DNA of 29,166 nt, from IMG/VR virus record IMGVR_UViG_3300017751_000143, positions 1 to 29,166 of that record; one strand, 5' to 3'. The stretch is from a virus. The translations under genes and the position numbers were made by a program. The notes under the pieces were generated by a model that was given only the letters and a program-made list of their open reading frames with translations, was not told the origin of the DNA and made no database searches. This document shows, piece by piece, positions 4,294-17,268 of the stretch (the first letter of the stretch is position 1; each line of letters begins with the position of its first letter).

Positions 4294-4499
4294 TGGCCAC
4301 TCAATCTCAAAAAAACTCTGAACAAATTATAAAATTACAAGGTGAAATAAAATTAATTCATAATAAAATTTCTGTAATTAAAGATAATCACTTGGCTCAT
4401 TTAGATGCTAAAGTAAATTCAATTTATAAATTATTATGGGCAGTAGGATTGATAAGTCTATCAACCTTGCTCAATCTAATATCAAACCTAATAAGTTAA
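4293..4499 (+). CDS. Small coiled-coil membrane protein, XhlA-like holin candidate
   Basis: This 68-residue protein has an N-terminal heptad-like helix (residues about 8-44, rich in Ile, Lys and Glu) and one C-terminal membrane segment (about 47-66, LLWAVGLISLSTLLNLISNL). That architecture is the one known for XhlA-type holins and hemolysins: a cytoplasmic coiled coil followed by a single transmembrane helix near the C-terminus. It starts at TAATG over the previous stop and lies about 1.2 kb upstream of the M15 endolysin gene. A holin role fits the context, but single-TM coiled-coil proteins are not diagnostic. A second membrane protein at 6148-6525 is a competing holin candidate. Confidence 0.75.
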   Translation: MATQSQKNSEQIIKLQGEIKLIHNKISVIKDNHLAHLDAKVNSIYKLLWAVGLISLSTLLNLISNLIS

Positions 4500-4765
4500 A
4501 TAAAACTCAAAAAGGAACTATTGGAGAATATCAGTGTATAGCTGATTATACTAGACAAGGCTATTGGGTAGCCAAGTCATGTGATCCACAATGCCCTTTT
4601 GATTTAGTTTTGGTAAGCCCTGATGGGAAGATTGAACTTGTTGATATAAAAACAAATACTTACAGGAAGAATGTCAAGTCTTATAGGCGTAAGATTTGGA
4701 GAATACCCTCTGCCAAACAAAAAAAATTAGGAATCAAAATAGTAATGGTTGATCATGGAAACTAA
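4436..4765 (+). CDS. PD-(D/E)XK-type nuclease, resolvase/endonuclease-like
   Basis: This 109-residue protein has the core pattern of a small PD-(D/E)XK nuclease: a GTIGEY motif with Glu31, an Asp56 in CPFDLVLV, and Asp70-Ile-Lys72 in LVDIKT, in the right order and spacing (the last motif is Asp-x-Lys rather than Glu-x-Lys). Such proteins include Holliday-junction resolvase-like and restriction-like phage enzymes. The substrate cannot be told from sequence. The best ATG (4436) lies inside the preceding gene, giving a 64-base overlap. No good ribosome-binding site is visible, and conserved sequence begins only around residue 22, so a shorter product from a non-ATG start is possible. Confidence 0.75.
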   Translation: MGSRIDKSINLAQSNIKPNKLNKTQKGTIGEYQCIADYTRQGYWVAKSCDPQCPFDLVLVSPDGKIELVDIKTNTYRKNVKSYRRKIWRIPSAKQKKLGIKIVMVDHGN

Positions 4766-14277: not shown

Positions 14278-14525
14278 GTATTTTTTTTTTAATACTAGGT
14301 GTTGCAAGTGCTGATGTAAATCCAGCCATGCACTTAATTAAAATTCCTATATCGCAAGGTGTAAAAAAAATAACTTGTGATCAAGCATTTGAGAAAAATA
14401 CAAAGTTTGTAGAAAATCCTAATTACAAAGAAGGCAACGGAGAAGTGTGGGGTTACTATGTTTATGAAGGTAAGCCAATTTTTTTACATTATTGCAAAGA
14501 CAAAGATGGGAATTGGGTTAGATGA
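14274..14525 (+). CDS. Small secreted protein with signal peptide
   Basis: An 83-residue protein with a short signal peptide (MSIFFLILGVASA, likely cleaved before Asp14) and two Cys in the mature part (ITCDQAF and LHYCKDK) that could form a disulfide. The mature part is mixed and ends DKDGNWVR. Ten consecutive T follow the first codons, a possible slippage site. The stop overlaps the next start (ATGA). I recall similar small exported proteins in pelagiphages; function unknown. Confidence 0.75.
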   Translation: MSIFFLILGVASADVNPAMHLIKIPISQGVKKITCDQAFEKNTKFVENPNYKEGNGEVWGYYVYEGKPIFLHYCKDKDGNWVR

Positions 14526-15031
14526 TAGAAATAAAATTAGACCTATATGAGTTAATGATTACTTCTCAAAATGGTTTGATGAGAGTCTATGAATCAATGC
14601 GTCTTGGTCATGATTGGGGGCATGGATTTAAAGGTAGTCTTAATGAAAAAATTGCTAAATCAATAAGTGGATCGCAAGCAGAATTAGTGGTTGCAAAATA
14701 TTTACAAATTGAACACACTTACCATGTCAATCATGGCAACAATGCCGATCTTATATTTCATGACACTCATTTACAAATACGATCTCAATTACCAAAAAAA
14801 AATAATAGTCTAATTATTAGACCTCAAGGAAGTAAGGTAGGGGAGATTTATATTTTAGTCATAGACAAAGCACCGATCTTTGAAATTCATGGTTTTGTAA
14901 ATTCAACTTATGTATTGGGAAGTGAAAAATACTTAACTGATTTTAATATTCCTAATAGGCCTAAATGCCATGCGATCCCAATTAATTTATTAACGCCAAT
15001 AGACTTACTAAAAAATGGGGCTTGGAACTAA
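14522..15031 (+). CDS. Conserved phage protein with restriction-fold-like motifs
   Basis: This 169-residue protein belongs to a widespread phage family that I recognise by IKLDLYELMITSQNGLMR at the start and by a core resembling a PD-(D/E)XK fold: Glu54 in GSQAELVVAKYL, Asp76 in NNADLIF and Gln85-Ile-Arg87 in LQIRSQ, with a C-terminal FEIHGFV strand. The Lys of the usual (D/E)xK motif is replaced by Arg and the acid by Gln, so catalytic activity is doubtful; DNA binding remains possible. It leads the modification module, overlapping both neighbours. Confidence 0.72.
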   Translation: MIEIKLDLYELMITSQNGLMRVYESMRLGHDWGHGFKGSLNEKIAKSISGSQAELVVAKYLQIEHTYHVNHGNNADLIFHDTHLQIRSQLPKKNNSLIIRPQGSKVGEIYILVIDKAPIFEIHGFVNSTYVLGSEKYLTDFNIPNRPKCHAIPINLLTPIDLLKNGAWN

Positions 15032-15222
15032 TGGCAAATAAAATAAATATTTTTGGTGATATTAGAGTTTGTTCAAAATGTGGTGATCCTGCTGATGTGG
15101 TTGAAAAGGGAACTAATTATTGTGCAGATTGTTTAAGTCGTAAATGGACTGGTAAAAATATTAATACATTAACAAAAGAAGTTATTGAAGATGACACTTT
15201 ACTAAAGGTGGTTAAGCCATGA
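15031..15222 (+). CDS. Zinc-ribbon protein
   Basis: The start is the ATG at 15031, overlapping the previous stop (TAATGG). The 63-residue protein has two C-x2-C pairs, VCSKCGDPAD and NYCADCLSRKW, about 17 residues apart, a simple zinc ribbon. The C-terminus overlaps the methyltransferase start by 4 bases. A zinc ribbon co-translated with DNA-modifying enzymes may help in DNA or protein binding. Confidence 0.78.
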   Translation: MANKINIFGDIRVCSKCGDPADVVEKGTNYCADCLSRKWTGKNINTLTKEVIEDDTLLKVVKP

Positions 15223-15761
15223 TTCCTTTTCCTAAAAAGAAATACGATATAATTTTGGCAGATCCCCCCTGGTATTTTAAAAGTTATTCAAAAAAAGGAG
15301 AAGGAAGAAATGCTACAAAACATTATCCATGTATGGAATTTAACGATCTATTGGATCTTGATATTAACAGTATTGCTAGTGTGGATTGCGTATTGTTTAT
15401 GTGGGTTGTTGATCCTTTACTTGAGAAATCTTTTGAGCTTATTAAAAAATGGGGTTTCACCTATAAAACAGTTGCTTTTACTTGGGCTAAAAAAAATAAA
15501 ACAAATGATAACTTGTTTATGGGGCTAGGTTATTGGACAAGATCAAATCCAGAAATGTGTTTGTTGGCCACTAAAGGTAAGCCAAAAAGATTTTTTAAAA
15601 ATGTAAAACAATTAATTATTGATAAGCGTAGAGAACACTCAAGAAAACCAGATTGTTCAAGAGATAGAATAGTTCAATTATGTGGAGATAAACCAAGAAT
15701 AGAACTCTTTGCTAGACAAAAAGTAAGTGGTTGGGATAATTGGGGTAATCATTTTGAGTGA
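15219..15761 (+). CDS. MT-A70 family adenine methyltransferase
   Basis: This 180-residue enzyme shows the MT-A70 signature: IILADPPWYF with catalytic DPPW at residues 15-18, the downstream CVLFMWVVDPLLEKSFELI segment, LGYWTRSNPEMCLLATKG, and the C-terminal KPRIELFARQKVSGWDNWGN block that binds the cofactor. It should transfer a methyl group from S-adenosylmethionine to N6 of adenine, in phages most likely in DNA. Length is complete for phage versions. It lies in the same overlapping gene string as the glycosyltransferase, so both may protect phage DNA from host restriction. Confidence 0.92.
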   Translation: MIPFPKKKYDIILADPPWYFKSYSKKGEGRNATKHYPCMEFNDLLDLDINSIASVDCVLFMWVVDPLLEKSFELIKKWGFTYKTVAFTWAKKNKTNDNLFMGLGYWTRSNPEMCLLATKGKPKRFFKNVKQLIIDKRREHSRKPDCSRDRIVQLCGDKPRIELFARQKVSGWDNWGNHFE

Positions 15762-16023
15762 TGATAAGCAAAACAATTTGTTTGGCCAAGAGGAGATACA
15801 AGAGGATTGGCGTAAAGAGTGGGATGGGATGCCTGAGTTTGAGCAATATCCTAAAGAGGCTTATCACAAAATTATTGTAAGGTTTGATAGTGAGGAAGAA
15901 CTTCAAAATTTTGCCAAACTTATAGGGCAAGATATAAATAATAAAACTAAAAGTATTTGGCATCCAAAACTTAAATTCGCAAATCATTTTAACAAAAGGT
16001 ACTTGGACAAAGATGAATCCTAA
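15754..16023 (+). CDS. Small phage protein with conserved IGQ/SIW motif
   Basis: No ATG is available; the best start is TTG at 15754, overlapping the methyltransferase stop, with GTG 15727 as an alternative. The product (about 89 residues) contains the pattern W-DGMPEFEQ, YHKIIVRFDSEEELQNFAKLIGQ and KTKSIWHPK, which I recognise from many phages as a small alpha/beta domain found alone or attached to ParB-like proteins. It overlaps the glycosyltransferase gene by 11 bases, a neighbour it commonly has. Its biochemical role is not known to me. Confidence 0.82.
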   Translation: MSDDKQNNLFGQEEIQEDWRKEWDGMPEFEQYPKEAYHKIIVRFDSEEELQNFAKLIGQDINNKTKSIWHPKLKFANHFNKRYLDKDES

Positions 16024-16885
16024 ATATCCAATTTATGTAGTTTCTAAAGCTAGATGGGATAGTAGGCTGACCGTTAAGTCTTTAGAGAGAATGAAAGTTC
16101 CTTATTTTGTAGTAGTAGAGGAACAAGAGCATGAACAATATTGTAGCGTCATTGATGAGTCTAAAGTTTTAATATTAGATAAACAATTCCAAAAAGATTA
16201 TGACATATTTGATGATGAAATTGGCAAGGGCAACGGCACAGGGCCAGGCGCAGCAAGAAATTTTTGTTGGGAACACTCCATAAGTAATGGTCATAAAAAG
16301 CATTGGGTTATGGATGACAATATTTATGATTTTTATAGATTAAATCGTAATGCTAAAAACATAGTACAAACTGGGACAATATTTAAAGCTGCAGAAGATT
16401 TTCATGATCGGTACGAAAATGTTAAGATAAGTGGATTTAACTATTGTAAGTTTTGTATAGCTAGTGAGAAATATCCACCCTTTTTGTTTAATACAAGAAT
16501 CTATTCAACACTATTAATAGATAACTCTACTAAATATAGATGGAGAGGAAGATATAACGAAGATACTGATTTGTCTTTAAGGGTTTTAAAAGATGGAGAT
16601 TGCACCCTTCAATTTAATGCTTTCTTACAAGAGAAGGCTACTACACAAAGGATCAGTGGCGGTAACTCAAAAGAATTTTATGATGAAGAAGGAACTATGA
16701 ATAAATCAAAAATGTTAGAAAAAATGCACCCTGATGTAGCTAAAGTTGTATGGCGTTTTAATAGGTGGCATCACTTTGTAGATTATTCACCTTATAAAAA
16801 GAATTTACCAATTAAAAAGAAAGATCTGATTACCCCCATAGGAGTCAATAACTATGGCATGGTGTTAAAGGAGATTTCTTTATAA
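16013..16885 (+). CDS. TET-associated-type glycosyltransferase (DNA base modification)
   Basis: This 290-residue protein has the features of the TET-associated glycosyltransferase family (GT-A fold): YPIYVVSKARWDSRLT at the N-terminus, GPGAARNFCWEHS, the WVMDDNI metal-binding motif (Asp101, Asp102), TIFKAAEDF, the family block RWRGRYNEDTDLSLRVL (176-192, Glu183/Asp184/Asp186) and FLQEKATTQ. Family members are proposed to attach sugars to hydroxymethylated bases in phage DNA. No TET/JBP dioxygenase or hydroxymethyl-pyrimidine synthesis gene is in the window, so the acceptor is unknown. The gene is intact and co-translated with the IGQ/SIW protein. Confidence 0.88.
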   Translation: MNPKYPIYVVSKARWDSRLTVKSLERMKVPYFVVVEEQEHEQYCSVIDESKVLILDKQFQKDYDIFDDEIGKGNGTGPGAARNFCWEHSISNGHKKHWVMDDNIYDFYRLNRNAKNIVQTGTIFKAAEDFHDRYENVKISGFNYCKFCIASEKYPPFLFNTRIYSTLLIDNSTKYRWRGRYNEDTDLSLRVLKDGDCTLQFNAFLQEKATTQRISGGNSKEFYDEEGTMNKSKMLEKMHPDVAKVVWRFNRWHHFVDYSPYKKNLPIKKKDLITPIGVNNYGMVLKEISL

Positions 16886-17268
16886 TGGCTTTTGAAAAAT
16901 TTGATAAATTATTATTAAACAATAAGGTTTTAAATAGTCATGAGAAATTAATCTATTTAATTTGTTATTCTTTTCGTAATGCCCCTCATGGATGTAGGAT
17001 AAGCCATAAATACCTTATGCAAAGAACAGGGATAGGGTGTAGAAGGACATTAACGAAGTTTTTGGATAGACTTACCCTATTTGGCCTTCTTGCTAGAAAG
17101 CAGGTGGATAACGGCACCAACCATTATGTTTTTGATAAAGAAAAGATGCAAGAATATATTCAACATAATACTAATAAGCGTAGAAAGATTGCATTAGCTA
17201 AAAAGAAAAAAAACAATCCACAAATTAATAAACAAATTGGGAATGTTATCAACATGGTTAAAAAATAA
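16885..17268 (+). CDS. Helix-turn-helix protein
   Basis: A 127-residue protein beginning at TAATGG over the glycosyltransferase stop. Residues about 14-75 form a winged helix of the HTH_36/replication-initiator O type: LNSHEKLIYLICYSFRN, ISHKYLMQRTGIGCRRTLTK as the recognition unit, and LDRLTLFGLLARKQ then a beta wing. The C-terminus is a basic tail. It could regulate the module or act in replication initiation, as similar N-terminal domains do in phage replication proteins; no replicative helicase is seen nearby. Confidence 0.8.
   Translation: MAFEKFDKLLLNNKVLNSHEKLIYLICYSFRNAPHGCRISHKYLMQRTGIGCRRTLTKFLDRLTLFGLLARKQVDNGTNHYVFDKEKMQEYIQHNTNKRRKIALAKKKKNNPQINKQIGNVINMVKK

What the first reader, a model, noticed from the sequence alone, without database searches (positions are those of the whole stretch)
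14522..17268. DNA-modification module: MT-A70 methylase plus TET-associated glycosyltransferase without a visible base oxidiser
Seen: five overlapping genes encode a restriction-fold-like protein, zinc ribbon, MT-A70 methylase, IGQ/SIW protein and a glycosyltransferase with DDN and RGRYNEDTDLSLRVL motifs, followed by a helix-turn-helix gene. Known: TET-associated glycosyltransferases are proposed to decorate hydroxylated pyrimidines. Inference: the phage may carry sugar-modified DNA, yet no TET/JBP, hydroxymethylase or thymidylate-synthase-like gene is in the window. Either the missing genome part has it, the host provides the substrate, or the enzyme acts on another target.
Basis: partly seen in the sequence, partly recalled or inferred. 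Interest (0 to 1): 0.68.

Follow-up and report, generated by a model that had tools for sequence, protein, structure and literature searches.

The report
Two-part orphan phage DNA sugar-transferase cassette
This marine temperate phage carries a mobile two-gene cassette, a TAGT-family glycosyltransferase and a small protein that is its obligate partner, which probably puts sugar on phage DNA although no carrier tested has a recognised enzyme for making the chemical handle that such transferases normally need.

Summary
The genes are as described. The transferase (16013-16885) is a real PF20691/TAGT protein (153 bits, cut-off 27.5), and no TET/JBP, thymidylate-synthase/hydroxymethylase or AlkB-like gene is in the window.

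The "MT-A70 + TAGT module" is not a unit. In sibling phages MT-A70 directly abuts the HTH gene with no TAGT. The TAGT is a cassette inserted in a slot where siblings carry C5-, N4/N6- or other DNA methyltransferases and PAPS-reductase-like genes.

The true unit is TAGT plus the "IGQ/SIW" protein. Over 143 loci they are fused (19 genes), overlap by exactly 11 nt (92 of 117 tightly linked split pairs, mostly ATGAATCCTAA), or lie close together. The exceptions are truncated or masked at contig ends. About 20 carry IGQ on a ParB domain, the kind that phages fuse to DNA methyltransferases; one encodes ParB-IGQ-TAGT as one chain. AlphaFold gives IGQ-TAGT pLDDT 94 (IGQ alone 69).

None of 49 records of this clade has TET/JBP, whereas TET-linked TAGTs lack IGQ. 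The part missing from the window is virion structure in near-complete siblings.

Best reading: a widespread IGQ-TAGT enzyme that glycosylates phage DNA against restriction, with an acceptor not made by any known hydroxylase. DNA as target is inferred, not shown.

The parts
15754..16023 (+). IGQ/SIW protein (89 aa, probable TTG start; the 98-aa ORF from GTG 15727 is the alternative): obligate partner of the TAGT
   Evidence: Directly upstream of, or fused to, TAGT in 88 of 91 loci and in all untruncated loci of 143. Invariant W32, M35, P36, E37, F53, F62, W78, P80 in 98-aa numbering.
16013..16885 (+). TAGT-family GT-A glycosyltransferase (290 aa)
   Evidence: PF20691 E=1e-44, six-frame match 6e-47, invariant DDN and NEDT motifs, GT-A fold of a homologous natural fusion.
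16013..16023 (+). 11-nt stop/start overlap ATGAATCCTAA (DES-stop of IGQ over MNPK of TAGT)
   Evidence: Exactly 11 nt in 92 of 117 tightly linked split pairs; ATGAATCCTAA in 47 of them.
16313..16321 (+). DDN motif (DxD-type, nucleotide-sugar/metal site)
   Evidence: Invariant over 34 relatives.
16553..16564 (+). YNED motif (putative catalytic acidic pair of GT2-like GT-A enzymes)
   Evidence: Y181, N182, D184 invariant and E183 at least 90% over 34 relatives.
15219..15761 (+). MT-A70 DNA adenine methyltransferase, a lineage backbone gene and left flank of the cassette; not part of the IGQ-TAGT unit
   Evidence: PF05063 110.6 bits. Present in siblings with and without TAGT.
16885..17268 (+). 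HTH/replication-initiator-like gene, right flank of the cassette
   Evidence: phrog_270 6.5e-7, phrog_391 4.5e-6. Abuts MT-A70 directly in TAGT-less siblings L117, L131, L133 and L134.
14522..15031 (+). Conserved lineage gene with an E...D...QxR pattern (PD-(D/E)XK-like, not proven)
   Evidence: phrog_18407 2.6e-8; alignment of sibling copies.
15031..15222 (+). Small CxxC zinc-ribbon protein (ATG start at 15031)
   Evidence: Sub-threshold zinc-ribbon hits; syntenic in siblings.

Best explanation
Genes 15754-16023 and 16013-16885 encode one enzyme in two chains, IGQ plus TAGT, a GT-A glycosyltransferase. The IGQ protein folds onto the transferase and probably helps to bind or select the acceptor. 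In related systems it is carried by a ParB/Srx domain, which would load the enzyme onto DNA. The enzyme transfers a sugar, probably from a host UDP-sugar, to bases of the replicating phage genome and so protects it from host restriction, like the DNA methyltransferases that occupy the same slot in sibling phages. Its acceptor is not a base hydroxylated by TET/JBP or by a T4-type hydroxymethylase, because these are absent; it is either an unmodified base group or a handle of unknown origin. Shown here: family membership, intact motifs, obligate IGQ-TAGT linkage, predicted joint fold, cassette mobility, and absence of the known hydroxylases that were tested. Inferred: glycosyltransfer activity, DNA as target, anti-restriction role. 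Unknown: the acceptor and the sugar.
For: Family and motifs. Obligate pairing and fusions. High-confidence joint fold of a natural IGQ-TAGT fusion (pLDDT 94.3, pTM 0.91) against IGQ alone (68.7, 0.37). GT-A fold matches to UDP-sugar transferases and to phage TAGTs, including a beta-glucosyl-HMC-alpha-glucosyltransferase. ParB-IGQ architectures and a ParB-IGQ-TAGT chain. The same ParB domain is found in phage DNA methyltransferases (phrog_498; PMC12783734). Slot shared with DNA methyltransferase and PAPS-reductase-like genes in siblings. Known TAGT function in T2/T6: addition of glucose to glucosylated hmC in DNA (PMC13216743; PMC13390438). No TET/JBP in 49 of 49 records of the clade, including nine cultured-phage records; no AlkB-like 2OG oxygenase in 23 records; no thymidylate-synthase family in the two 47-48 kb Vibrio phages and 18 contigs.
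Against: No virion of this clade has a reported modified nucleoside that I could find. The T4-related Aeromonas phages Aeh1 and 65 carry IGQ-TAGT, yet the dCMP of phages lacking the T4 modification network is thought to lack major modification (PMC2993671). GT-A folds serve many acceptors, and the closest solved structures act on proteins or glycans. The IGQ domain has no known homologue outside this pairing, so its DNA link rests on ParB. Three Pfam families were tested as hydroxylases; an unknown one could be missed. The joint model is of a homologue (50% identity in TAGT), not of the window proteins.
Confidence: 0.55

Rival explanations
1. IGQ-TAGT is a glycosyltransferase for a non-DNA acceptor, such as a host or phage protein, tRNA, or surface glycan (superinfection exclusion or seroconversion type).
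For: GT-A enzymes act mostly on such acceptors, and the best solved-structure matches are protein or glycan transferases. FkbM-type or other methyltransferases, a cytidylyltransferase, and sialyltransferase-like and GT9-like genes neighbour some copies, as expected of sugar tailoring. No acceptor-base synthesis genes were found.
Against: ParB/Srx linkage, a cassette slot shared with DNA methyltransferases, and DNA function of the characterised PF20691 member of T6. No membrane or export features were noted in the 290-aa or 89-aa proteins (not formally tested).
Confidence: 0.25
2. Canonical pathway: the acceptor is a hydroxylated pyrimidine made by a TET/JBP or hydroxymethylase encoded in the missing ~10 kb of this phage, or supplied by the host.
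For: The contig is a fragment, and known TAGTs act after hydroxylation.
Against: In the near-complete sibling the missing stretch is tail fibre and ejection genes plus unknowns. 49 of 49 records of the clade lack TET/JBP. TET-linked TAGTs form a separate, 100/100-supported group without IGQ. Hosts span many phyla.
Confidence: 0.1
3. MT-A70 and TAGT form one modification module, the sugar being added to a site prepared by the methylase.
For: Adjacent, co-directional, overlapping genes.
Against: MT-A70 is found with TAGT in only about 10 of 91 loci, all of one phage lineage. Siblings keep MT-A70 without TAGT, and most phages with IGQ-TAGT have no MT-A70 beside it.
Confidence: 0.03

Closest known systems
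T2/T6 beta-glucosyl-HMC-alpha-glucosyltransferase (PF20691/TAGT, phrog_842)
   Same: Same family; a structure-level match to this annotated class in Klebsiella phage PKO111; GT-A fold.
   Different: The T6 gene lies beside its thymidylate-synthase-type gene (inferred to be the dCMP hydroxymethylase) in a genome with an alpha-glucosyltransferase. It has no IGQ part and is too distant for phmmer seeded with the window or P12024L proteins.
TET/JBP-linked TAGT, e.g. Nonlabens phage P12024L
   Same: PF20691-type transferase, phage early region, methyltransferase next door.
   Different: Only about 24% identity. Adjacent TET/JBP (PF12851 2.8e-29). No IGQ partner. Separate 100/100 group in the tree.
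Solitary TAGT of Aeromonas phage Aeh1 and relatives ('unknown base', Iyer et al. 2013 as cited in PMC8056088)
   Same: Same clade, 57-58% identity; IGQ fused to TAGT in one chain.
   Different: There the pair is fused and sits in large T4-like genomes; here it is split with an 11-nt overlap in a ~39 kb temperate phage genome.
ParB-domain DNA modification enzymes of phages (ParB fused to or beside methyltransferases; CmoX/CmoY clusters)
   Same: Same ParB/Srx domain next to a DNA-modifying enzyme.
   Different: The catalytic partner is a glycosyltransferase with the IGQ part; in the window the ParB domain itself is absent.

Membership tests
PF20691 TAGT | Profile score above the curated cut-off | tested here: met
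   153.4 bits against 27.5; 154.1 bits in six-frame search.
PF20691 TAGT | GT-A fold with DxD-type and acidic catalytic motifs | tested here: met
   DDN and YNED conserved; GT-A matches of the model of a homologue with 50% identity.
PF20691 TAGT | Glycosyltransfer to a nucleobase of DNA | not testable with these tools
   Needs biochemistry; shown by others only for the T-even member.
TET/JBP-associated modification system | TET/JBP oxygenase in the same genome | tested here: not met
   PF12851: none in the window and none in 49 records of the clade; positive control found. The window's own genome is incomplete.
T4-type 5-hydroxymethyl pathway | Thymidylate-synthase-family hydroxymethylase | tested here: not met
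   PF00303: none in the window, none in 18 contigs and two Vibrio phages. Aeh1 and 65 have a TS-family gene but lack T4 gene 42.
MT-A70 plus TAGT module | Conserved co-occurrence of the two genes | tested here: not met
   Decoupled in both directions.
IGQ-TAGT pair (proposed here) | IGQ directly upstream of or fused to TAGT | tested here: met
ParB-linked DNA modification enzymes | ParB/Srx domain in the same protein or operon | tested here: not met
   Not in the window: its IGQ stands alone. Met in about 20 related loci.

The most novel reading that the evidence does not exclude
IGQ-TAGT is a DNA glycosyltransferase that needs no prior base hydroxylation. Guided by IGQ (and by ParB where present) it attaches a sugar directly to a canonical base, perhaps at particular sequences, as a methyltransferase does. 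This would be a new chemistry of DNA modification, common in environmental phages.
Probability: 0.25. Interest if true: 0.9.

Novelty: new variant of a known kind. Interest (0 to 1): 0.6.

Why it matters
Solitary TAGTs are reported in 288 of 753 GT-bearing phage genomes with no known acceptor pathway (PMC13216743). This analysis gives one large clade of them a definable unit: an obligate partner domain, a ParB connection to DNA-modifying enzymes, and a swap-in position among DNA methyltransferases. It names small cultured phages (Vibrio phages 1.076.O and 1.124.O) in which the open question 'what does a TAGT without TET do?' can be answered by one nucleoside digest. It also tells experimenters to express IGQ together with TAGT; the transferase alone is probably incomplete, which could produce false negatives.

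Tried and rejected
1) MT-A70+TAGT as one unit: rejected by sibling genomes and by TAGT loci elsewhere. 2) Another conserved partner (hydroxylase, sugar synthesis): neighbourhood clustering of 90 loci found none except IGQ; the next most frequent family is in 18 of 90 at variable positions. 3) Structure of IGQ alone: low confidence, not interpretable. 5) PDB sequence search for TAGT and IGQ: nothing usable. 6) Plasmids: no TAGT of this clade. 7) Iyer et al. 2013, which defined TAGT, is not held, so I could not check whether it mentions the IGQ part or ParB. 8) L116/L113/L115 slot genes had no Pfam hit but PHROGs name them DNA methyltransferase or PAPS-reductase-like. 9) The apparent mutual exclusion of C5-methyltransferase and TAGT in the slot was not used as evidence: few, related genomes.
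Full report
WHAT THE WINDOW IS. The window is a whole IMG/VR record, a 29,166-base linear viral fragment. It holds integrase and repressor-like genes, leftward recombination genes, a rightward early operon, then terminase, portal and major head protein, so it is a temperate tailed phage. Near-complete siblings are 38.7 and 39.4 kb. The stretch that the window lacks corresponds in the 38.7 kb sibling to tail-fibre and other virion genes, an ejection-like protein and a few unknowns, not to a nucleotide-modification operon.

The ORFs, motifs and overlaps are as reported. The transferase is a clear PF20691 (TAGT) protein and the methylase a clear MT-A70 protein. TET/JBP, thymidylate-synthase/hydroxymethylase and AlkB-like families are absent from the window in six frames; the PF12851 search was shown to work on P12024L.

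THE MODULE IS DRAWN DIFFERENTLY. I collected 80 viral-contig relatives (60-100% identity; the scan stopped at about 600) and cultured phages at 50-58% identity: Aeromonas Aeh1, 65 and phiAS5, Tenacibaculum PTm1, Vibrio 1.124.O, 1.076.O, 12B8 and Kuja, Pectobacterium POP12. MT-A70, zinc ribbon and the 14522 gene accompany TAGT only in about ten loci of this phage lineage, whereas the small IGQ/SIW protein is at TAGT in 88 of 91. Clustering all neighbours in 90 loci gave no other conserved partner. Sibling phages with 76-82% identical terminase show the same order with or without the cassette. In L117, L131, L133 and L134 the MT-A70 gene runs directly into the HTH gene; in the window, L114, L054, L009 and others IGQ-TAGT lies between. 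In other siblings the neighbouring positions hold a C5-cytosine methyltransferase (PF00145), an N4/N6 methyltransferase in place of MT-A70 (PF01555), other phage DNA methyltransferase families, or a PAPS-reductase-like gene. The locus is therefore a variable DNA-modification site, and IGQ-TAGT is one of its exchangeable cassettes.

IGQ AND TAGT ARE ONE MACHINE. Over 143 loci, 19 genes are IGQ-TAGT fusions, and 92 of 117 tightly linked split pairs overlap by exactly 11 nt, most often ATGAATCCTAA, which encodes DES-stop of IGQ and MNPK of TAGT in two frames. Six pairs have a gene inserted between them; those without IGQ are cut by contig ends or masking. In the window the overlap is 16013-16023. 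IGQ alone is predicted poorly (pLDDT 68.7, pTM 0.37). In the natural fusion from L222, with split homologues aligned as separate rows, the model has pLDDT 94.3 and pTM 0.91 with IGQ residues at about 84-95. The natural inference is that IGQ folds on the transferase. The model is of a homologue (50% identical in TAGT), not of the window proteins.

LINK TO DNA. In about 20 loci, from phage contigs and prophages of Bartonella, Erwinia, Pantoea, Chryseobacterium, Acidobacteriaceae and others, IGQ is the C-terminal part of a ParB-domain protein just upstream of TAGT; L222 encodes ParB, IGQ and TAGT in one frame. The ParB part matches 488 phage records, many annotated as DNA methyltransferases, and a DNA-methyltransferase PHROG. 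PMC12783734 states that ParBc domains frequently occur fused to DNA methyltransferases. Terminase genes next door in L201, L205, L212 and L229 show prophage context. With the known role of the T6 member (PMC13216743; PMC13390438), DNA is the most likely acceptor. This remains inference.

NO KNOWN ACCEPTOR PATHWAY. None of 49 records with this clade has TET/JBP, including nine cultured phages. The two Vibrio phages of 47-48 kb and 18 contigs also lack the thymidylate-synthase family, and 23 records lack AlkB-like 2OG oxygenases. Aeh1 and 65 lack T4 genes 42 and 56 and the glucosyltransferases (PMC2993671). TET-linked TAGTs of the P12024L type form a separate 100/100-supported group and have no IGQ in the loci examined. 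The absence is thus a property of the clade, not of this fragment.

MECHANISM. Most likely IGQ-TAGT binds a UDP-sugar through DDN, uses the NED acids as GT2-like enzymes do, and transfers the sugar to DNA presented by IGQ and, where present, ParB. The modified sites would resist restriction. The acceptor group is unknown: either a canonical base group, which would be new chemistry, or a handle made by an unrecognised enzyme. FkbM or other methyltransferases, a cytidylyltransferase, second TAGTs, and sialyltransferase-like and GT9-like genes beside some copies suggest that the sugar can be elaborated. The main rival is a non-DNA acceptor (confidence 0.25).

NOVELTY. Orphan TAGTs are not new: the Aeh1 copy is listed as modifying an 'unknown base' after Iyer et al. 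2013 (PMC8056088), and 288 of 753 genomes have solitary TAGTs. I found no mention of the IGQ partner, the hard-wired overlap, the ParB architectures or the exchange with DNA methyltransferases, but the 2013 paper could not be read. I rate it a new variant of a known kind.

LIMITS. Loci were found by conserved-motif patterns, so frequencies describe this clade, not all PF20691. Most contigs are incomplete. No activity is shown anywhere in the clade.

Noticed in passing
L201 5196-7253 and L202 (Erwinia, Pantoea prophages): Sialyltransferase-like (phrog_4603), GT9-like (phrog_6804) and methyltransferase (phrog_6564) genes lie directly upstream of ParB-IGQ, TAGT and terminase (families tested in L201 only): a possible larger glycan-building DNA-modification operon.
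   Followed up: partly
L026 1329-2120; L080 1824-2627; L067 7662-8513 and 8785-9747; L216 5749-7473; Kuja (L088): Second, divergent TAGT genes beside or between IGQ and TAGT, possibly adding a second sugar as in T6.
   Followed up: partly
L006 9265-10008; L008 8661-9068; L100 5197-6024: FkbM methyltransferase, cytidylyltransferase and class I methyltransferase genes next to IGQ-TAGT, suggesting sugar tailoring.
   Followed up: partly
L115 4391-5218, L116, L119, L124, L151; L212 5019-5939; L226 6307-7029: PAPS-reductase-like PP-loop genes (phrog_424/PF01507) recur in the sibling slot and near IGQ-TAGT in bacterial genomes; role unknown.
   Followed up: partly
L226 4747-7029 (Rhodovulum euryhalinum): Two ORFs plus a PAPS-reductase gene upstream of IGQ-TAGT resemble, from memory only, a type IV CRISPR-Cas neighbourhood.
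   Followed up: no
L208 7081-7990; L238 7384-8083: IGQ fused to N-terminal domains that do not look like ParB, so IGQ may pair with several targeting domains.
   Followed up: no
window 4436-4765: Weak PD-(D/E)XK nuclease-like gene (PF11645 E=3e-4) between the ejection and lysis genes, 70-75% conserved in siblings G043 and G044.
   Followed up: no
BFVD A0A6G6XN95: An 890-aa viral protein matches the whole IGQ-TAGT model at 41% identity (TMq 0.86); its other domains and its phage were not identified.
   Followed up: partly
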